This document shows, piece after piece, positions 1-11,070 of a DNA stretch of 64,000 bases. The stretch's first letter is position 1. Each line of letters starts with the position of its first letter. The translations under genes were made by a program, and so were the position numbers. The stretch lies in the NCBI RefSeq assembly GCF_028649655.1, contig NZ_JAQSLN010000003.1, positions 1,054,001 through 1,118,000 of the forward strand, read 5' to 3'. The notes beneath the pieces were generated by a model that saw only the letters and a list, made by a program, of their open reading frames with translations, did no database searches and had not been told where the DNA came from. Source of the DNA: Halobacteriovorax sp. GB3. Its GTDB lineage: Bacteria; Bdellovibrionota; Bacteriovoracia; Bacteriovoracales; Bacteriovoracaceae.

Positions 1-2571
1 CTCGTTTTAAAATCCGGTGTCTCAACAGGAACTGGCAGCAGTAGTATTCTTTTTCAAACCGCACCTTCTGGTTCAAGTGGAACGAGTGATAATGCTTTAT
101 CAACAGCAATGATCATTAATGGTTCTGGAAATGTAGGAATTGGAACCTCTACTCCTAATTCACTTTTATCTTTGACAGGTGTTGATCAAACGGTTTCCCT
201 AGCAGCTTCTAGAAATTTTCCAGCTATGCTCGAAATTAGTTCAACAGATCCATCTGCTGGAGCAGAATCAAATATCTTATTTACTTCGACTTATTCGGGC
301 ACATCAAAAGTAGCTAATGCTTCAATAGCTTCTATTCAAGAGACATCCGGAAGTAATGCAGACTATGGAAAATCATCGCTGGTTTTTAGAACGAGTGGTC
401 CAATCATTGCCGATCTTAACAAAGAACGAATGAGAATTAATGGCAATGGAATGGTTGGAATCGGAGAAAGTAACCCGACAACCCTTCTCTCTCTTGCAGG
501 AACTGATGATAAATTTATAAGCTTAGACAGAACGGCCAATGCCAATGTCGACGACATCCTAACAATGGGAGTTGCCTACTCCGCAGGCGGTGGTGCTGAC
601 GATTACTTTTACACAGGTTTTTCAGCTCATCAATTTGTATTAAGACCATCTGGAAATGTTGGTATTGGTGTAACAAACCCAAGTGCAAAACTCCATGTCA
701 ATGGAACTTTCATCGCCGACAATATGGGTCTCTCCCTTCCTCCAAGTAACACATTTGATGATAAAACTTTGCCGGCCGGACTCTATATGTCCAACACAAG
801 TTCGACAGGAAGCCCGACTCCCGGAAATAGTGGAGCAGTGCTTAATATGCAAAGTGGTGTCGCTTCAGGTGCTGTTGCTCAATTGCATATTCGCTCAAAC
901 AATACAGAAATTCCTGAGGCCTATATCCGTCACAGTGATAACACTGGAGATTTCAAGCCATGGTACAAATTGGTCACAGAAAATGACTCAGGAAATGTGG
1001 GAATTGGCACGAATACTCCATCCTCCGTACTTAATGTAAAAGGTCCTTCTGATACTCCAAGTTCTTTTGGGATTGCAAATTTTGATACGATTACAGGAAC
1101 GAATGATGTTGGAGTAAAGATAGGAGCAGTGGCCGGGGCAGGAACAGCTGGATATGGCTTCATTCAAGCTAAACATGTTGGTTCAACAAATGATGGAAAC
1201 CTCATTTTAAATTCGGCCGGAGGTAATGTCGGAATTGGAACAACCTCTCCTATCGGTGGACTTCATATACAAAAGGCCCGTTGGACAGAAGGTGGAGTGT
1301 CAGGACCACAAATTACAGTGCAAGGTTCGAGAGCGGCCATTGGGTTATACGATGATAATGAAACAGGAGAAAATGTCTTTGCCATTCAAAATGGTGAAGG
1401 AAACTTTCATATATACTCAACGGCCTATACAAGTGATGACCTAGGTTTTGATGAAAAAGTTTCTAGAATGATGATTCAAAAAACAACAGGTAATGTTGCC
1501 ATTGGAACAACAGGAAGTCCTGTCGATAAACTAACAGTTTACGGTGATGGAGAAAGTCTAAGACTTCAAGCTGCCACCGCAAATATTGCTGATTCTTCTT
1601 CTATCATTTTCGCCGAGAATGCTACTGTTGACCATTTTAAAATTGGCTATAGTGGTAGTGATAGTGAGTCAGGTAGTGGTGCACTAACTTTTAGCACTCC
1701 TGAAAGTTCAACTATCTTAAAAATGAATCGCTTGGGGAAAGTTGGAGTTGGAGTAAATCCTAGTGGAGCAAAGCTTCACATTAATAACAGTACGACATTT
1801 GACCCCGCTTCTAATAGCAACGCTGCTCTTCTTCTTGATGGCTCATCAGGTGGAGGTATTGTGTTTAAAGATTCAGGATACGGTGGTATTTGGATGTCTG
1901 GTTCTGGTACGACAATGAACTTTAAAACAAATGGGGCAAGTTCAGGATTTGGATCAACAGAGGGATCGCTTGTACTCAATGATTCAGGAAATCTTGGAGT
2001 CGGAACAGCTCTTCCAGAAGCGCGACTACAGGTTTCAGGTGGAGGACTTTGTGTTGGAAACAATGCAACTTGTAACACTGATAATAATACTGAAGGTGTC
2101 ATCTATGCTGTAAGCTCAAGTGTAACAGCTGCTGACTACGCGGAATACTTTCACAGTGAGGGAGAACTCTCTCCAGGAGATCTTGTAGGATTAAATCCAG
2201 AAAATGGACTCGCTCGACTTTATAAGACCGGAGATAAATTGTTAGGAATTGTTTCTACCAAACCTGGAATTGTAGGAAATAGATTACTCGCTAATCAAAA
2301 AGATACTGTTCTTGTCGCTTTGATGGGTCAAGTCCCCGTAAACGCCGATCAAGTTCTTGAAGAAAAAAGAATTGTAAAAACTCTTGATGGAAAAGTGATT
2401 GGTCACCGCCTTGCTAGCGGAGATATTTATTTAAATATCAGTTCAAGAGACGAGCAGCAAAGTCGTGAGATTGCTTCATTGAAAGATGAAAATGAGCAGC
2501 TAAAATCACAGCTTATCGAAGTTCAGAGTGTGGTTTGTGAAATAAAACCAGACGCCTCTTTTTGCCAATAA
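1..2571 (+). CDS. Giant fibre-like surface protein with GNVGIGT repeats (5' end outside window)
   Basis: The reading frame is open from base 1, so the gene starts upstream and about 856 C-terminal residues are visible. The first in-window ATG at 109 is internal. At least eight repeats of the form G-N-V-G-I-G-T-x-x-P, often followed by K-L-x-V-x-G, recur every 50-110 residues with variable beta-rich stretches between them. Such repeats are typical of trimeric tail-fibre-like surface proteins. Near the C-terminus a D-Y-A-E-Y-F segment and P-G-D-L-V-G resemble a domain often found at the end of this family, possibly a G2-type autoproteolytic assembly domain. A short coiled coil follows, then a tail with two cysteines. 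A second giant gene of the same style follows 151 bp downstream. The role as an adhesive fibre is inferred, and no phage structural genes are nearby. Confidence 0.8.
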   Translation, partial: LVLKSGVSTGTGSSSILFQTAPSGSSGTSDNALSTAMIINGSGNVGIGTSTPNSLLSLTGVDQTVSLAASRNFPAMLEISSTDPSAGAESNILFTSTYSGTSKVANASIASIQETSGSNADYGKSSLVFRTSGPIIADLNKERMRINGNGMVGIGESNPTTLLSLAGTDDKFISLDRTANANVDDILTMGVAYSAGGGADDYFYTGFSAHQFVLRPSGNVGIGVTNPSAKLHVNGTFIADNMGLSLPPSNTFDDKTLPAGLYMSNTSSTGSPTPGNSGAVLNMQSGVASGAVAQLHIRSNNTEIPEAYIRHSDNTGDFKPWYKLVTENDSGNVGIGTNTPSSVLNVKGPSDTPSSFGIANFDTITGTNDVGVKIGAVAGAGTAGYGFIQAKHVGSTNDGNLILNSAGGNVGIGTTSPIGGLHIQKARWTEGGVSGPQITVQGSRAAIGLYDDNETGENVFAIQNGEGNFHIYSTAYTSDDLGFDEKVSRMMIQKTTGNVAIGTTGSPVDKLTVYGDGESLRLQAATANIADSSSIIFAENATVDHFKIGYSGSDSESGSGALTFSTPESSTILKMNRLGKVGVGVNPSGAKLHINNSTTFDPASNSNAALLLDGSSGGGIVFKDSGYGGIWMSGSGTTMNFKTNGASSGFGSTEGSLVLNDSGNLGVGTALPEARLQVSGGGLCVGNNATCNTDNNTEGVIYAVSSSVTAADYAEYFHSEGELSPGDLVGLNPENGLARLYKTGDKLLGIVSTKPGIVGNRLLANQKDTVLVALMGQVPVNADQVLEEKRIVKTLDGKVIGHRLASGDIYLNISSRDEQQSREIASLKDENEQLKSQLIEVQSVVCEIKPDASFCQ

Positions 2572-2722
2572 ACCCCTGCCCTATTTTTTAGTCGAAATCA
2601 GAATCCCTCAATATTTAGTTAGAAAATCATTTCAAATAGTTAAGCTATTACAAGGGTATTTCTCTAACTATTCGATAAGATGGACAATATAAGAATTTGT
2701 TAACTTTTCTCAAAGATATCAA

Positions 2723-5700
2723 ATGTTTTTTAAAAAGAGTCTCTTCTATTGCCTATTTATCTTAAGCTTTTGCTCGCTTGCAGAAACCATCTCCTATTCT
2801 GGAAGACTCGTCCAACCGTCCACAGGTATACCATTAACAGGACCAGTCGATCTTTCAATAAAGATCTATCAGGAGACAACTCCAGGCAATCCAGTCGTTC
2901 AATGCGATAAAGCAATTAACGGAGTCACTCTAAATAATGGTGTCTTTAATCTCAACTTAAATTACGCAAGCTCTTGTGACTCGAATACGAGAGATCTCTC
3001 GGAGATTATCGAGTCGGCCATGGCCAGTAATCAAGCAATTTACATCGAAGTCACAGATGCGACAAATGCGAAGATCTATCCTATGCAAGTCATTAACTTC
3101 GCTCCCATGGCCCTCTATGCAAAAAGAGCTGCAAGTGTAGCGCTTGCCGATAAAAGTTTAGACGTTGCAAAACTCACATCGACTTGTACAAACAATCAAG
3201 TAATCAAATCAGATGGCGCCGGTGGATTTATATGTGCCAATGATGAAACGGGACTTACGAGTGCGATCGAAAATGTATCGAGTGGAGAGGCCATCAATGT
3301 GTCGATTTCTTCCAATGATGCTACAATTAATGTTCTCTATGACAATACAACAATAGGACTTAACTCTAACCAACTTGAAGTTAAAGATGCTTCGATTGGC
3401 ACGACGAAATTATCAGACAATGCAGTCTCTACTTTAAAGATACAAGATAATAGTGTTACTTCCACTAAAATACCTGCAAATACAATTAGTGCCACTCATA
3501 TTCAAGACGGAGTAATCAGCGATGTCAAAATCTCAAGTGTCTCTGCTACTAAAATCAGTGGGGTTATTGCCGATGTAAATCTTCCGGCCATAACGACGAC
3601 TCACATTCAAGATGGAACCATAACAAATGACGATCTAGCAGATTCGACAATTGCTCTGACAAAGCTTGATCCAAGTTCTTGTAGCTCAGATCAAGTCGTA
3701 AAATTTGATCTTATTCTCAATCAATTTATCTGTGCCGACTCATCATCTCTTTCAACAAATGCTTGGACAGAAAATGGTGGAGACATCTATAGAAGTAGCG
3801 GGAACGTTGGAATTGGAACGAACTCTCCAGGGGCCCTATTACATGTTGCTAATGGTTCAGCGAAATCTTCAGTGAGTATCGATGGGCTCAATGGTGGAAC
3901 ATTAAACTTTCTCCACTCCGGTGCCCAACGAGCATCTATTGATTATACCAATTCCACAGGCATGATGACTCTTGAAACGCTTTACAGTGGAATTATTTTT
4001 AAAACAGGTTCAGGTGGTAGTTCGATTGAAGTCATGCGCATGAGTGGAAATGGAAATATTGCTATTGGAAAAACAACTGGAACTGAAAAGCTAGATGTAA
4101 ATGGGAATATTAAAGGAACTCAACTTTGTATTGGTTCAGATTGCCGTTCATCATGGCCAAGTAGTAATGCAGGAACAGTGACAAGTGTTACAGGCGCTTC
4201 AACCGGAGCAATTGATGTAGCAAATACGAGTACAACACCCGAGATATCTGTTCGCACAGATGGAGCATCCCTTGAAGTAAACGGATCAAATAACCTACAA
4301 GTTAAAGACAGTGGAATCACAAATTCAAAAATTGCAACGGGACTTGATGCAAGTAAAGTTTCAACAGGAACTCTTCCCGATGCTGTTTTAAGTTCAACTG
4401 TCACTAAGCTTGGTCAAACAATCGAAAGCGCTGAAATTACCGATGGAACTATTGCTGATGCAGACATTAGTTCAACGGCCTCGATTACTTGGACAAAAAT
4501 TGATAAGTCAGGAGCGAGTGCTTCAGACATTGGAGCAGTTTCGACATCTCGTCTTGTCAATACAGGAACGGGACTATTAGGAGGAGGAGCTCTTTCTAGT
4601 GATCTCACACTCAGTGCCGATGTCGATGCCATTAACTTTTGGACTAAAACGACGAATGATCTCTCTTATAGCACTGGAAATGTCATGGTTGGATCGAGCA
4701 CTCCGACTGATAAGTTAGAAATTGAAACGGGAAATATTAGATTTAGAAATATTGGTGATGCGGCCTCTAGAGGACTCATTTTTTCTGAAAATGATACGGT
4801 CTACCATTCGATGTCATTGGTCTATGATGGAAGACTTTCAGGAGTAAATAATAAGATGCACATTATGGGTGATGAGGGAACTCTTGATGAAGATGAACTT
4901 GTTACAATTACTCGCGATGGTAGAGTTGGTATTGGGACAACCTCACCTAGTCTTTCACTAGATGTTCAAGGACCAGCTAGCTTTTCTGGTTTCTATACAA
5001 ACTCTCAAATTACCTATGCAAATTATGACTATACGGATTTAAGCTATCTCCTACTCGCTAAAACATCGAGTAATGATAAAGTCTACGGGCGAATCTATGG
5101 ACATAGAGGAAGTGATTCAGCGATTCCTAGGCCATACTATGTCGATGTCATCATCGATACTTCTTCGGCCTATACTGATGTTGGAGAAATTTCTAAAATT
5201 TATCGTGTTGATCAAAAGGTCTCTCTTGCACAAATCACTTATAAGGGCGAGAACTGGTGGGCCTTAAAGTTTGATACTGGAAGTGATTTTCACGCTAATA
5301 ACATTGGTTTTCAAGGTTACAAACTTAATACAGACGCTGAGGCCTTCACTTTTATTGATCAGGACAACGCTGATTTAACTGCGGAAGTTAGTGTAAAAGA
5401 ATACACTCGCCTAGCGGGAACTCTTTATTCAACAAAGAGTAACAATATTGGAATCGGAACAATTGCACCGACTGAAAAACTTGAAGTTTCGGGAAATATC
5501 AAAGCGACTTCATTTATTGGAGATGGCTCTTCATTGACAGGAATCAATGCTTCTAGTTCAAGCAATACAACTGATGCTATTATTAATGCTGATAGTGATG
5601 GCAACTCTAGTGGTGCCGTCCTCTTTCAAACGGGTGGTTCGACAAAAGCGACTTTAACAAATAATGGCTCATTTGGACTTGGGACTTCTACCCCAGAAAG

Positions 5701-7660
5701 TCTATTCAACTTAGTCGGTGGCAATCTTCAACTAGGGCAAACAACTGATTCCTACTACTCGACTTTAAGTAGCAATATTTTAACTTTCAATAGAAATGGA
5801 GTGAGCTATATTGATAATGCTGATGCCAACGGTGAGATCGCCATTAGAACTGGAGGGACAGGAAATATAGATTTTCTCGTCAGTTCCACTGGTAAAGTTG
5901 GTATTGGTACAAGCACTCCAAGCGGTAACCTTCACGTTAAATCAACTGATACAATTGGCCTTAGTACTGACCCGAATGCAGCAAAAGAAAAAGCGGCCAT
6001 TCATATCGAAGGGAATACTTCTGATCATAGAATTTTAATGGACGGAAATGAGATTATTCACTACGATAATAATTTTCTCATTGGTTCTTACAACTCTAAA
6101 TCAACCACAAATGGTTCCATCGAATTTAAAACGGGAAATACCGCCAATACATTCAACACGAAAATGAACATCAAGGCCGATGGAACAATTGGAATGGGTG
6201 TGACAGATCAAATCTATCCTCTCGTTGTAAAAAATGATTCCGTATCAAATGCAGGTATCGCCCTTGAAGCTTCTACTAGTACTAACCTCCTTGCCTTTTT
6301 TCACGAGGGAGCGGGTAACGACGGGGAAATATTTATTCGCGATGAAACCAATACCAATAAAGTAAAATTGGACTCTAATGGAGTTAGCTACTTTAATGGA
6401 GGAAATCTTGGTATTGGAGTTTCGGCTCCAGATCAAAAACTAGACGTCGCGGGAAATATTGAAGTGAGTGATAACAATTCATTTGGTCGCGCTATTGCCA
6501 GCACGACAGATCGATACGCTTTTACACCTTACAGTGCGAATGTAAACACTTTGACGGGACTAGGCCCTAGTGCTCCATTTGGAAATGGAATGTTAATAGA
6601 GTCTGATGCCTTAATAGGTTTTGTAGAAAGTGATGCCAATTCTCTTGTTGGGTATATGAATCTCAATGACAAGAACTTCATATGGGATGGTAATATTGGG
6701 CTTGGAACGACTACCCCTCAGGCCAAGCTCACAGTTACAAGTAGTAGTAAGGACTACTTTGTTAATATGCCTCTTGGTGGCCAAACAAGCACTGAGGATG
6801 CTGGAGGCTATAATTACATCCTTCTTCATAGGGCCTATGAAGGAACGGCGTTAAATGAGCACTATGTAAATGGAAAAATCCACTTTGTTAGGGGGGGAAC
6901 AGCTGCATGGAATAGGAAGTTTACTGTTGAAGTTAATTCATCATGTTCTTATACAAAATGCAGAGGTTCTTATGTCGCCCATAACGAAGATACTCTTCTC
7001 GTTTATGTAACCTATAATGGCATCAAGTACATGGCCTTAAGGATTTTGAGCAACTCAAGACTTTATTCGGGAACGTTTACTGGTTTTATGAAAAATACTT
7101 CGTCTGGATCAGCAGAGAGTCTTACACTTGTTTACGACGACGATGTTACAAGTGTTGAATCTTTTGGACTTGATGGTACAACTGAAATAGAAGATGCAAT
7201 TTCGACTGCTCGTATTTATGCAAAACGAGGTGTAAAAAATTCTAATCACGGAAAGCTTGTGGCCAATTATGATGGTACAACAAGAACAGTTGATATCCCG
7301 TGGACAGGTGATGATGTTCTCCAACTAGTGGGCTATACAAAAAACTGGTCTGCACAAGGACCAGACTTGAGAGATACTAGTGGATGTGGTTCAGGTGACA
7401 ACCCCTCTCACCGCTTTGTTGACACATCAAATGAATGGAATGGAGCTTATACGGTCCATTTTTCTAAAAGAGTCTCCGATAGTGCACCCCTAATAAGACT
7501 TGAGTGGAACGGTTGGAATACAACACTCTACAATGCTGCAAATACTTCAGTTGCAACAGGGCTTGGACAAGTCAGTGCAACTCTTTACTGGACAGGCTCA
7601 CATTGGGAAATCCAACACATGATGGGAAGAGTCGGAAATACAAATTTCAACTGCTACTAA
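2723..7660 (+). CDS. Giant secreted fibre-like protein, 1645 aa, GNVGIGT repeats
   Basis: An N-terminal signal peptide (M-F-F-K-K-S start, about 20 residues) is followed by a domain opening Y-S-G-R-L, with N-G-V-F-N-L and P-M-A-L-Y-A-K motifs. This is the usual first domain of large bacterial surface fibres. Residues about 210-340 contain I-Q-D-G / D-L-A-D repeats. About ten G-N-x-G-I-G-T-x-x-P modules follow. Two related beta-rich insert domains seem to occur at residues about 761-903 and 1344-1490. The last about 155 residues (H-G-K-L-V-A to the C-terminal N-C-Y) form a tip unlike the preceding gene's end. The family is exported and probably trimeric, and I infer an adhesin or prey-binding fibre. 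The start lacks a strong ribosome-binding site but the signal peptide supports it. Confidence 0.85.
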   Translation: MFFKKSLFYCLFILSFCSLAETISYSGRLVQPSTGIPLTGPVDLSIKIYQETTPGNPVVQCDKAINGVTLNNGVFNLNLNYASSCDSNTRDLSEIIESAMASNQAIYIEVTDATNAKIYPMQVINFAPMALYAKRAASVALADKSLDVAKLTSTCTNNQVIKSDGAGGFICANDETGLTSAIENVSSGEAINVSISSNDATINVLYDNTTIGLNSNQLEVKDASIGTTKLSDNAVSTLKIQDNSVTSTKIPANTISATHIQDGVISDVKISSVSATKISGVIADVNLPAITTTHIQDGTITNDDLADSTIALTKLDPSSCSSDQVVKFDLILNQFICADSSSLSTNAWTENGGDIYRSSGNVGIGTNSPGALLHVANGSAKSSVSIDGLNGGTLNFLHSGAQRASIDYTNSTGMMTLETLYSGIIFKTGSGGSSIEVMRMSGNGNIAIGKTTGTEKLDVNGNIKGTQLCIGSDCRSSWPSSNAGTVTSVTGASTGAIDVANTSTTPEISVRTDGASLEVNGSNNLQVKDSGITNSKIATGLDASKVSTGTLPDAVLSSTVTKLGQTIESAEITDGTIADADISSTASITWTKIDKSGASASDIGAVSTSRLVNTGTGLLGGGALSSDLTLSADVDAINFWTKTTNDLSYSTGNVMVGSSTPTDKLEIETGNIRFRNIGDAASRGLIFSENDTVYHSMSLVYDGRLSGVNNKMHIMGDEGTLDEDELVTITRDGRVGIGTTSPSLSLDVQGPASFSGFYTNSQITYANYDYTDLSYLLLAKTSSNDKVYGRIYGHRGSDSAIPRPYYVDVIIDTSSAYTDVGEISKIYRVDQKVSLAQITYKGENWWALKFDTGSDFHANNIGFQGYKLNTDAEAFTFIDQDNADLTAEVSVKEYTRLAGTLYSTKSNNIGIGTIAPTEKLEVSGNIKATSFIGDGSSLTGINASSSSNTTDAIINADSDGNSSGAVLFQTGGSTKATLTNNGSFGLGTSTPESLFNLVGGNLQLGQTTDSYYSTLSSNILTFNRNGVSYIDNADANGEIAIRTGGTGNIDFLVSSTGKVGIGTSTPSGNLHVKSTDTIGLSTDPNAAKEKAAIHIEGNTSDHRILMDGNEIIHYDNNFLIGSYNSKSTTNGSIEFKTGNTANTFNTKMNIKADGTIGMGVTDQIYPLVVKNDSVSNAGIALEASTSTNLLAFFHEGAGNDGEIFIRDETNTNKVKLDSNGVSYFNGGNLGIGVSAPDQKLDVAGNIEVSDNNSFGRAIASTTDRYAFTPYSANVNTLTGLGPSAPFGNGMLIESDALIGFVESDANSLVGYMNLNDKNFIWDGNIGLGTTTPQAKLTVTSSSKDYFVNMPLGGQTSTEDAGGYNYILLHRAYEGTALNEHYVNGKIHFVRGGTAAWNRKFTVEVNSSCSYTKCRGSYVAHNEDTLLVYVTYNGIKYMALRILSNSRLYSGTFTGFMKNTSSGSAESLTLVYDDDVTSVESFGLDGTTEIEDAISTARIYAKRGVKNSNHGKLVANYDGTTRTVDIPWTGDDVLQLVGYTKNWSAQGPDLRDTSGCGSGDNPSHRFVDTSNEWNGAYTVHFSKRVSDSAPLIRLEWNGWNTTLYNAANTSVATGLGQVSATLYWTGSHWEIQHMMGRVGNTNFNCY

Positions 7661-7705: not shown

Positions 7706-8677
7706 ATGGACACACTTAAAGAGCTAAAAACAATTTATGAGTTACAAGAGATAAAAGATGACATCATTGAAACTGAGGTCTTAAGTCACGTTGAGTATAA
7801 AGGAAAGAAGTTTCCACTCATCTCCTTTTCAATCGGATCAAAAGACCCTAAAGCACCAACTCTAGGACTTTTTGGTGGCGTTCACGGCCTTGAGCGAATT
7901 GGTACTCACGTCGTTCTTAGTTATTTAAGTAGCATTATGACTCAGCTAAAGTGGGATGAAGAACTAAGAGAGAGTTTTAAAAATTATCGCCTTGTTTCTA
8001 TTCCCCTCATTAACCCTGCTGGGATGGCCTATTTTAAAAGAGCAAATCCAAGAGGCGTTGATCTTATGAGAAATGCTCCGACGAAAGCGAATATAGAAAA
8101 TGCAATGCCCCTACTTTCAGGTCAAAGCTATAGTAAAAAGATCCCCTGGTTTAGAGGCGATCCCAATGAAATGGAAATTGAATCCCGCTCAGTTGTCGAA
8201 TTTGTAGAGAGAAAACTCTTTCAATCACAAATGTCACTATCTGTGGACTTCCACTCTGGCTTTGGGTTAAAAGATAGACTTTGGTACCCTTATGGTTACA
8301 CGAAGTCGGCCTCTATTCGACAACCAGAAATTGATAAACTAACAAACCTTTTTAATGAGACGATTCCCCACCACGTCTATAAAATAGAACCTCAATGTGC
8401 TTCCTATGCTATTCAGGGAGATCTTTGGGATTATCTACTTGATGAACATATTTCAAGAGGCCAAGGGGTCTACCTTCCATGGACGCTAGAGATGGGTTCT
8501 TGGAGTTGGGTAAAAAAGAATCCTCTTCAAATTTTTTCAGCAGAAGGACTCTTTAATCCTATTAAAGACCATCGCTACCAAAGAACAATGAGAAGACATT
8601 TTCTTCTTATAGACTTTCTCTCTAAAGCAGTTCGAAATCATAAAAATTGGATTGGCCATGAAAGCGCAACAATATAA
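7706..8677 (+). CDS. M14-like zinc carboxypeptidase/deacylase
   Basis: The 323-residue protein carries G-G-V-H-G-L-E-R at about residues 52-60, giving the His and Glu zinc ligands. D-F-H-S-G near residue 180 gives the third ligand. W-T-L-E-M-G near residue 270 could supply the catalytic Glu. This layout is that of M14-type carboxypeptidases and the related succinylglutamate desuccinylase and DUF2817 groups. I see no signal peptide, so it is probably cytoplasmic. The substrate cannot be read from the sequence; a peptide or amide is likely. The gene overlaps the following alpha/beta hydrolase by about 20 bp, so the two are probably co-transcribed. Confidence 0.75.
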   Translation: MDTLKELKTIYELQEIKDDIIETEVLSHVEYKGKKFPLISFSIGSKDPKAPTLGLFGGVHGLERIGTHVVLSYLSSIMTQLKWDEELRESFKNYRLVSIPLINPAGMAYFKRANPRGVDLMRNAPTKANIENAMPLLSGQSYSKKIPWFRGDPNEMEIESRSVVEFVERKLFQSQMSLSVDFHSGFGLKDRLWYPYGYTKSASIRQPEIDKLTNLFNETIPHHVYKIEPQCASYAIQGDLWDYLLDEHISRGQGVYLPWTLEMGSWSWVKKNPLQIFSAEGLFNPIKDHRYQRTMRRHFLLIDFLSKAVRNHKNWIGHESATI

Positions 8678-9471: not shown

Positions 9472-10221
9472 ATGAAGAAGCTCATTTTTATCTTCACATT
9501 TATTTCATTAGAGATTCACGCTGAGAGCATTTGCCGCGTTGGAACTTTTAGTAGCCCTCCCGCCCTTGCAGATGCAAAGAGCGTTCATGGAGCACCGGCC
9601 AATGCGATTATTAAGGAAGCTCTCTTCTTAGAGGGATTTAAAACACAATGGATTGACTACAATCATTACCAGGCCGACAGTGATCTCTTAAATAATAAAA
9701 TGGATCTGGCCTTTGGTGCACTTTTAGAACTTCCTTCAAGAACGAGAAGAAAATTAAGCTTCATTCCTCTTCTTAGTTATCGCTACTCGATGATCTCTCT
9801 TCATAAAAAGAAAAAAGAGAAGAAGCAAATCATTGGAATGCTGCCTTACCACAAACTTGTCGTTAAGAAGTATACTCAAGAAGGACAATCTATCATTCAC
9901 GGCACAAGAGAGAAGCTTCTCACAAAACTCATAAGCGGTGAAATTGATTCTATGCTCGATATCTACACCAATTTCCTCTTTGAAATTAAAACTCTGAAAT
10001 ACCCTAAAGATAAATTCGACTATCTTTCAGGTAACGACGACATTAACTTTGGAGGGGTCATATCAGCTAAAAACTCTCCATGTTTTCAAGCCTTTAAGAG
10101 AGGTCTTCACAAATTGACCCTCAAATATTCTCTTTCAACCTTCTCTTCGAACAATTGGCCAAAATGGTTGCCTTCGATCTTTCTTTCTAAAGATGAAATT
10201 ATAAGACACAGCTTAAATTAA
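9472..10221 (+). CDS. Periplasmic solute-binding-like protein (family 3 style)
   Basis: The 249-residue protein has a signal peptide (K-K-L-I-F-I-F, cleavage after H-A). The mature part has a two-lobed binding-protein look: R-V-G-T-F near the start, M-D-L-A-F-G-A in the middle, and S-R-T-R-R-K-L-S-F, a pattern seen in extracellular family 3 solute-binding proteins. It is a paralogue of the next gene: both share T-R-R-K-L-S-F, N-F-G-G-V and a C-terminal P-K-W-x-P-x-I-F-L-S. No permease or ATPase gene is nearby, so transport is not supported by context. A sensory or scavenging role is possible. Confidence 0.7.
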   Translation: MKKLIFIFTFISLEIHAESICRVGTFSSPPALADAKSVHGAPANAIIKEALFLEGFKTQWIDYNHYQADSDLLNNKMDLAFGALLELPSRTRRKLSFIPLLSYRYSMISLHKKKKEKKQIIGMLPYHKLVVKKYTQEGQSIIHGTREKLLTKLISGEIDSMLDIYTNFLFEIKTLKYPKDKFDYLSGNDDINFGGVISAKNSPCFQAFKRGLHKLTLKYSLSTFSSNNWPKWLPSIFLSKDEIIRHSLN

Positions 10222-10314
10222 TCCCTTTTATTCATTTTCGAATGCTTTATTGAGTAAGAAATCTTAACTAACAAAATCACCAAGTATAAAGAAAAATTAA
10301 TTATAATGAGAAAT

Positions 10315-11070
10315 ATGAAGATCATCATTCTTTTAACTTTTTTCCTATCTTCGCAGACATACGCTTGCCGTGTGGCCACCTTTGATATGCCTCCTTGGGT
10401 AAAAGCGCAAAAGACCAATACTCCAGCATATATGAATGACATTGTGGCCATGGCCTTTGAAGAGATGGGTCAGAAAGTAGAATGGATTACTCATCAATAT
10501 AATCTTGGCCCAGAAACTCTATTTAAGAAAAAGGCAGATCTTTTTATTGGTGCAGTTCTAGATTTTGATTCCAACACGAGAAGAAAACTTTCATTCACTC
10601 CCTTTGTTCGTTTTAACTATGTTTTAATTGAACAGAAAAATCACCCCAATGCCTCTCATCAATTATCTTCTGATGTCAGTGTGGGAATTATGAAAAACTA
10701 CAAATCAGCTCGCATGAACCTAGAGAAATTCGGTGTCAATATTATTGAAGCACAAAGGCATGAGCTCTTAAACTTATTAAATAAAAAGAAGATCAATTAC
10801 ATTATTGATGTCCATGCAACTTATCTTTACTTTCTAGGAGAAAAGCTTCGAATCGAAAATAAATTTAATTATATAAAAGATGACCAAGATACCAACTTTG
10901 GTGGTGTTGTTGGACTTAGAAAGTCTCAGTGCCAAGAAACATTTAGAAAGGGACTAAGTAAACTCTTTCAGAAAAAGAAAGGCCTTAAAAACTCAGTTTC
11001 TCTCTATCCAAAATGGATGCCTGAGATTTTTCTCTCAGACAAAGATATTATCATCAATCAAATTAACTAA
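10315..11070 (+). CDS. Periplasmic solute-binding-like protein, paralogue of the upstream gene
   Basis: Signal peptide (K-I-I-I-L-L-T-F-F-L, cleavage near T-Y-A) followed by C-R-V-A-T-F, a mid A-D-L-F-I-G-A and N-T-R-R-K-L-S-F, then N-F-G-G-V and P-K-W-M-P-E-I-F-L-S. The whole length of about 251 residues aligns with the preceding gene, so the two arose by tandem duplication and divergence. I choose the ATG at 10315. The ATG at 10306 adds M-R-N and has no ribosome-binding site, although either is possible. The gene ends a few bases before a strong bidirectional terminator. Ligand unknown, and no transporter partners are present. Confidence 0.7.
   Translation: MKIIILLTFFLSSQTYACRVATFDMPPWVKAQKTNTPAYMNDIVAMAFEEMGQKVEWITHQYNLGPETLFKKKADLFIGAVLDFDSNTRRKLSFTPFVRFNYVLIEQKNHPNASHQLSSDVSVGIMKNYKSARMNLEKFGVNIIEAQRHELLNLLNKKKINYIIDVHATYLYFLGEKLRIENKFNYIKDDQDTNFGGVVGLRKSQCQETFRKGLSKLFQKKKGLKNSVSLYPKWMPEIFLSDKDIIINQIN

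What the first reader, a model, noticed from the sequence alone, without database searches (positions are those of the whole stretch)
1..7660. Tandem giant mosaic fibre genes, candidate prey-recognition fibres
Two adjacent genes encode very long secreted proteins with 8 and about 10 GNVGIGT modules, a shared repeat style but different C-terminal ends. The layout resembles the chimeric trimeric fibres (mosaic adhesive trimers) reported for Bdellovibrio, where the tips vary with the target. No phage genes surround them. A pair with different tips could widen the range of cells recognised. This is the most likely undescribed system in the window.
Basis: partly seen in the sequence, partly recalled or inferred. 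Interest (0 to 1): 0.7.

Follow-up and report, generated by a model that had tools for sequence, protein, structure and literature searches.

The report
Predator's swappable-tip surface fibre cluster
A marine bacterium of a bacteria-eating family carries a cluster of giant surface fibres with exchangeable tips, the same kind that Bdellovibrio uses to recognise prey, and beside them lies an undescribed membrane-anchored partner gene that accompanies such fibres throughout this family.

Summary
The locus holds three paralogous fibre genes (1403, 1811, 1645 aa) and a fibrinogen/laminin-G-like gene; the last two fibres are the ones reported. They are mosaic adhesive trimer (MAT) fibres, known from Bdellovibrio: the N-terminal domain is homologous to that of Bd1334 (hhalign E 3e-9), the capping-loop motif repeats, and the third fibre ends in the Bd1334 tip (PDB 8OML, E 2e-25), keeping both cage tryptophans and both tip cysteines. 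The genome is in the genus of Bacteriovorax sp. BSW11_IV, whose syntenic cluster carries an unrelated tip on the middle gene, so tip exchange is seen directly. New here: an undescribed gene just upstream (membrane anchor, 130-200 aa disordered linker, conserved Cys domain, no Pfam family) adjoins MAT genes at 25 loci in nine genera and is present in all 26 MAT-bearing genomes of the family, but was not found in Bdellovibrio. I propose that it holds or exports the fibres at the outer membrane. That step, trimerisation and prey binding are inference; structure predictions failed (pLDDT about 30).

The parts
1..2571 (+). F2, fibre gene 2 (C-terminal 856 of 1811 aa; the gene starts outside the window at about -2864). 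Further parts of the cluster lie upstream of the window, in locus L003 (L003 position 18001 = window position 1), all on the + strand: partner gene L003:5564-6937 (458 aa; TM anchor, disordered linker, Cys domain), F1 L003:7112-11323 (1403 aa, S74 end with SDRRLK), fibrinogen-C-like/laminin-G protein L003:11324-14956 (1210 aa).
   Evidence: F2; 8 capping loops in this part. Partner. F1: Pfam PF13884 E 8e-17, SDxxxK at residue 1276. Fibrinogen-like; 61% identical in BSW11_IV.
2107..2334 (+). Peptidase_G2-like stretch in the end of F2 (residues 703-778 of the window part), followed by a coiled-coil-like C-terminus
   Evidence: Pfam E 4.4e-5, 23.4 bits, just below the cut-off of 25; starts like the phi29 gp12 C-terminal fragment 3gqh (E 0.05); Campylobacter phage tail fibres
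2664..2682 (+). Promoter-like box CTAACTATTCGATAAGATG upstream of F3
   Evidence: similar box in front of 8 of 9 MAT genes of the genus for which the upstream DNA was read
2723..7660 (+). F3, fibre gene 3 (1645 aa)
2783..3172 (+). MAT N-terminal domain of F3 (about 130 aa after the signal-peptide-like stretch)
   Evidence: A4 against the Bd1334-type domain A8: probability 96.2, E 2.7e-9
5015..5437 (+). Exchangeable module of F3 (residues 765-905)
   Evidence: 72% identical to modules in BSW11_IV fibre 2 and in a fibre of another genus
7229..7657 (+). Bd1334-type tip of F3 (residues 1503-1645)
   Evidence: 8OML E 1.8e-25; W1078, W1102, C1061 and C1150 conserved, W1151 replaced by Tyr

Best explanation
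A MAT (mosaic adhesive trimer) fibre cluster of a marine Bacteriovoracaceae, very probably a predator. Shown by sequence: each fibre has a signal-peptide-like start, the MAT N-terminal domain, a long shaft with repeated capping loops and interchangeable modules, and its own end (F1: S74 chaperone-protease; F2: Peptidase_G2-like; F3: Bd1334-type beta-sandwich). Inferred: the fibres are exported, trimerise (F1 and perhaps F2 with a self-cleaving chaperone end), stay on the cell by the N-domain, and bind prey-surface groups with tips and modules. Also inferred, with lower confidence (about 0.4): the partner protein encoded just upstream, anchored in the inner membrane with a linker long enough to cross the periplasm, or lipidated with a short linker in two relatives, holds or exports the fibres at the outer membrane. 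The stated confidence is for the MAT fibre identity and the surface-adhesin role.
For: N-domain homology to Bd1334 type; F3 tip to 8OML/8ON4 with cage Trp and Cys kept; capping loops above chance; S74 with SDxxxK in F1; genus of Bacteriovorax sp. BSW11_IV; different tip on the orthologous middle fibre and chimeric F3; C1q and Collar tips on other MATs of the family. Partner: adjacent at 25 loci in nine genera, present in 26 of 26 MAT-bearing family genomes, linker length follows the kind of anchor.
Against: Trimer, surface display and prey binding untested; AlphaFold runs failed. F2's Peptidase_G2 match is below the Pfam cut-off. The partner was not found in Bdellovibrio, and several partner copies lie away from any recognised MAT. 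Many family genomes lack the MAT N-domain, so it is not essential to the lifestyle of the family as a whole.
Confidence: 0.82

Rival explanations
1. They are tail fibres of a prophage or a domesticated phage tail.
For: PHROG tail-fibre profiles match the shafts; S74, Peptidase_G2 and Collar domains are phage-type.
Against: Secretion-signal-like N-termini; the MAT N-domain; no phage genes in the flanks; the F3 tip has no match in 50,697 phage records or in viral contigs; the N-domain was found in only two viral contigs, near-duplicates with a reverse transcriptase.
Confidence: 0.03
2. They are general surface adhesins (biofilm, self-aggregation or attachment to particles) rather than prey-recognition fibres.
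For: No functional data; N-domain proteins also occur in organisms not known as predators, such as Chloroflexus.
Against: The host genus is predatory; the tip keeps the Bd1334 ligand cage; tips are swapped as in Bdellovibrio MATs, where one MAT tip binds prey glycans (PMC10769870).
Confidence: 0.15
3. The upstream partner gene is a linked gene with an unrelated task, such as an envelope-stress sensor, and not a fibre anchor or export factor.
For: Copies away from MATs exist; linkage can persist without a shared function; no fold could be assigned.
Against: The cytoplasmic part is only a few to about 35 residues; adjacency holds in both orientations and in nine genera; genus-level co-occurrence 9 of 9; linker length tracks the anchor.
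Confidence: 0.4

Closest known systems
MAT superfamily of Bdellovibrio bacteriovorus HD100 (Caulton et al. 2024, PMC10769870), in particular Bd1334 (PDB 8OML, 8ON4)
   Same: N-terminal domain homologous by profile, capping loops, S74 and non-S74 ends, the Bd1334 tip with its two internal cage tryptophans and two cysteines, tip swapping
   Different: Longer fibres (1403-1811 aa against about 1000); C-terminal cage residue Tyr instead of Trp; a Peptidase_G2-like end on F2; several fibres in one cluster with a fibrinogen-like gene; a linked partner gene not found in Bdellovibrio
Fibre cluster of Bacteriovorax sp. BSW11_IV (NZ_AUNE01000002, L030)
   Same: Same order: partner, S74 fibre, fibrinogen-like gene, two more fibres, M14 peptidase
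   Different: Unrelated tip on the middle fibre; shaft modules exchanged
Peptidase_G2 end of phage phi29 gp12 (PDB 3GQH)
   Same: The F2 end aligns from the first residue of the cleaved fragment (D-[YF]-A-E-Y-F)
   Different: Below the Pfam cut-off (23.4 against 25 bits); cleavage untested

Membership tests
MAT superfamily | Signal peptide followed by a conserved domain of about 130 aa | tested here: met
   Signal-like N-termini by eye; the domain is homologous to that of Bd1334, hhalign probability 96.2, E 2.7e-9. Its beta-rich fold was not modelled.
MAT superfamily | Shaft with capping loops V-G-[GN]-x-x-P-x-x-x-L type | tested here: met
   7-11 strict loops per fibre against 0.2 in shuffles
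MAT superfamily | C-terminal S74 domain with SDxxxK, or a non-S74 tip | tested here: met
   F1 S74 with SDRRLK; F3 Bd1334 tip; F2 Peptidase_G2-like end
MAT superfamily | Mosaic architecture with exchanged tips | tested here: met
MAT superfamily | Trimeric fibre | not testable with these tools
   Only single-chain prediction is available; the one fibre-end run gave pLDDT 29
MAT superfamily | Display on the predator surface in attack phase; binding of prey glycans | not testable with these tools
   Needs microscopy and binding assays
Peptidase_G2 (PF11962), end of F2 | Match to the family profile | tested here: inconclusive
   E 4.4e-5, 23.4 bits against a cut-off of 25, over 76 of 228 profile positions
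Peptidase_G2 (PF11962), end of F2 | Self-cleavage after assembly | not testable with these tools
   Needs a recombinant protein
Peptidase_S74 (PF13884), end of F1 | Profile match and SDxxxK motif | tested here: met
   E 8.2e-17; SDRRLK

The most novel reading that the evidence does not exclude
The partner protein is a dedicated anchor or export factor for MAT fibres: the unidentified cell-surface element that binds the conserved MAT N-domain, at least in this branch of predators.
Probability: 0.38. Interest if true: 0.8.

Novelty: new variant of a known kind. Interest (0 to 1): 0.55.

Why it matters
How MAT fibres are held on the predator and cross its outer membrane is unknown; Caulton et al. 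say that the surface element awaits identification (PMC10769870). A gene family that sits beside MAT genes across nine genera of a predator family is a concrete candidate and makes that question testable by deletion and pull-down. The F3 tip is also a natural further example of the Bd1334 fold, for which that paper found few relatives, with its ligand cage kept across two distant lineages.

Tried and rejected
Structure prediction of the partner domain (3 sequences) and the F2 end (2 sequences) gave pLDDT 33 and 29, so no fold search was run. Prophage origin was rejected (gene context). The idea that the box upstream of the MAT genes is the flagellar promoter was dropped: flagellin genes of the same genome carry a different element, and outside the genus the box is only weakly enriched. 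The partner was sought in 19 genomes outside the family, Bdellovibrio included; nothing beyond one weak local hit in a 1327-aa frame. The broad N-domain alignment was too divergent for the named-genome scan, so a narrower one was used. No paper found in the library describes MATs in Bacteriovoracaceae; the supplementary tables of Caulton et al. could not be read and may list some.

Full report
Observation. The two ORFs are present at the stated coordinates and the loop motif is far above chance. The first is truncated by the window edge. Fetching upstream DNA (L003 position 18001 is window position 1) shows the whole arrangement on the + strand: partner gene, F1 (1403 aa, S74 end), a fibrinogen/laminin-G-like protein (1210 aa), F2 (1811 aa), F3 (1645 aa), then an M14 peptidase. 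The first 340 residues of F2 and F3 are 75% and 67% identical to those of F1, so the fibres are paralogues. The genome has exactly these three copies of the N-domain.

Host. A scan of named genomes with the N-domain alignment returned Bacteriovorax sp. BSW11_IV first. Bacteriovorax isolates of four clusters are described as obligate predators (abstract of PMC4511183; that BSW11_IV is among them is from my own knowledge). The host is therefore very probably a marine predator.

Membership in the MAT superfamily. Residues 1503-1645 of F3 align to the C-terminus of PDB 8OML and 8ON4 (E 1.8e-25). This is the Bd1334 tip: the same C-terminal sequence ends a 1151-aa protein in G154, whose 3,782,950-base chromosome fits B. 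bacteriovorus HD100 (own knowledge). In the alignment of five such tips W1078 and W1102 of the phosphate cage and the cysteines at 1061 and 1150 are invariant; the terminal W1151 is Tyr in F3 and BSW11_IV and His in the two others. The tip is rare (5 of 369 genomes of the phylum) yet shared between two distant lineages. The N-domain profile matches the Bd1334-type N-domain. F1 carries S74 with SDxxxK. F2 ends in a Peptidase_G2-like stretch below the Pfam cut-off, similar to the phi29 gp12 C-terminal fragment and to tail fibres of Campylobacter phages.

Mosaic structure. BSW11_IV has the same gene order. Its first fibre has the same S74 end (73% over the last 124 residues) and its third the Bd1334-type tip (42%), but its middle fibre has an unrelated tip, and F2 beyond residue 690 has almost no counterpart there. 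F3 is chimeric: residues 680-1000 match the second BSW11_IV fibre at 64-75%, residues 1320-1645 the third. The F3 module 765-905 is also 72% identical to a module in a fibre of another genus (G012) whose N-domain is only about 35% identical, and two other F3 modules occur in the reverse order in G012. Of the 43 ends examined most are S74; others include C1q, Collar, a weak FGE-like match and unassigned tips. TNF/C1q-like and C-type-lectin-like tips also cap Bdellovibrio MATs (PMC10769870).

The partner gene. Relatives of the gene directly upstream of F1 lie next to MAT genes in other genera. Of 34 distinct partner copies fetched, 25 have a MAT 7-782 bp away, 16 on the same strand with the partner first and 9 divergent. 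Partner and MAT distances correlate (Mantel r 0.91; 0.96 within one genus), as expected of a pair inherited together; this does not by itself show contact. The protein has a short N-terminal tail, a TM segment, an R-x-P-[AS]-S motif in 27 of 34 (0.5 expected), a disordered-looking linker of 133-199 aa in nearly all (one 368; one shorter value is a domain-boundary artefact), and a domain of about 270 aa with ten invariant columns, two of them Cys and two further Cys nearly invariant. Two members from different genera have a lipobox and a linker of only 28-29 aa, and lack the motif. The simplest reading is that the Cys domain works at the outer membrane, reached by a long linker from the inner membrane or by a lipid anchor. 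No Pfam or NCBIfam family matches it beyond a marginal Fn3_assoc hit, and it was not found in Bdellovibrio.

Shown and inferred. Shown: homology, architecture, mosaicism, genomic linkage of the partner. Inferred from the Bdellovibrio work: surface display, trimerisation, glycan recognition. Inferred here only: the role of the partner, and a tip ligand with a phosphate-like group.

Verdict. The fibres are new members of the MAT superfamily in a second predator lineage; the linked partner family, and the Peptidase_G2-like end, are what is new.

Noticed in passing
L002 (G000:C4:246253-247704, outside the window): A 484-aa protein with a type IV prepilin start (GFSLVEIMVAAG) ends in an S74 chaperone-protease domain (SDKRLK): a pilin-S74 fusion. 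Matches covering both halves occur in several other genera of the family.
   Followed up: partly
L102:4884-10294 (IMG/VR contig 3300048589_001426): A protein with the MAT-type N-domain and a lectin-like C-terminus is followed by a reverse transcriptase, which looks like a diversity-generating retroelement acting on a fibre tip.
   Followed up: no
window 2664-2682, and upstream of F1, F2 and the BSW11_IV MAT genes: A shared box (about CTAAC-N2-3-YCGATAWAAT) lies 12-67 bases before 8 of 9 MAT genes of the genus; flagellin genes of the same genome have a different element.
   Followed up: partly
window 9472-10221 and 10306-11070: Two adjacent paralogous secreted proteins of about 250 aa that look like solute-binding proteins by eye but match no Pfam family.
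   Followed up: no
L003:11324-14956 and L030:6142-9777: A fibrinogen-C-like/laminin-G protein is kept between fibre genes 1 and 2 in both genomes of the genus (61% identical) and starts at or inside the end of fibre gene 1.
   Followed up: partly
window 7706-8677: An M14-type zinc carboxypeptidase follows the fibre cluster in both genomes of the genus (68% identical); relation to the fibres unknown.
   Followed up: no
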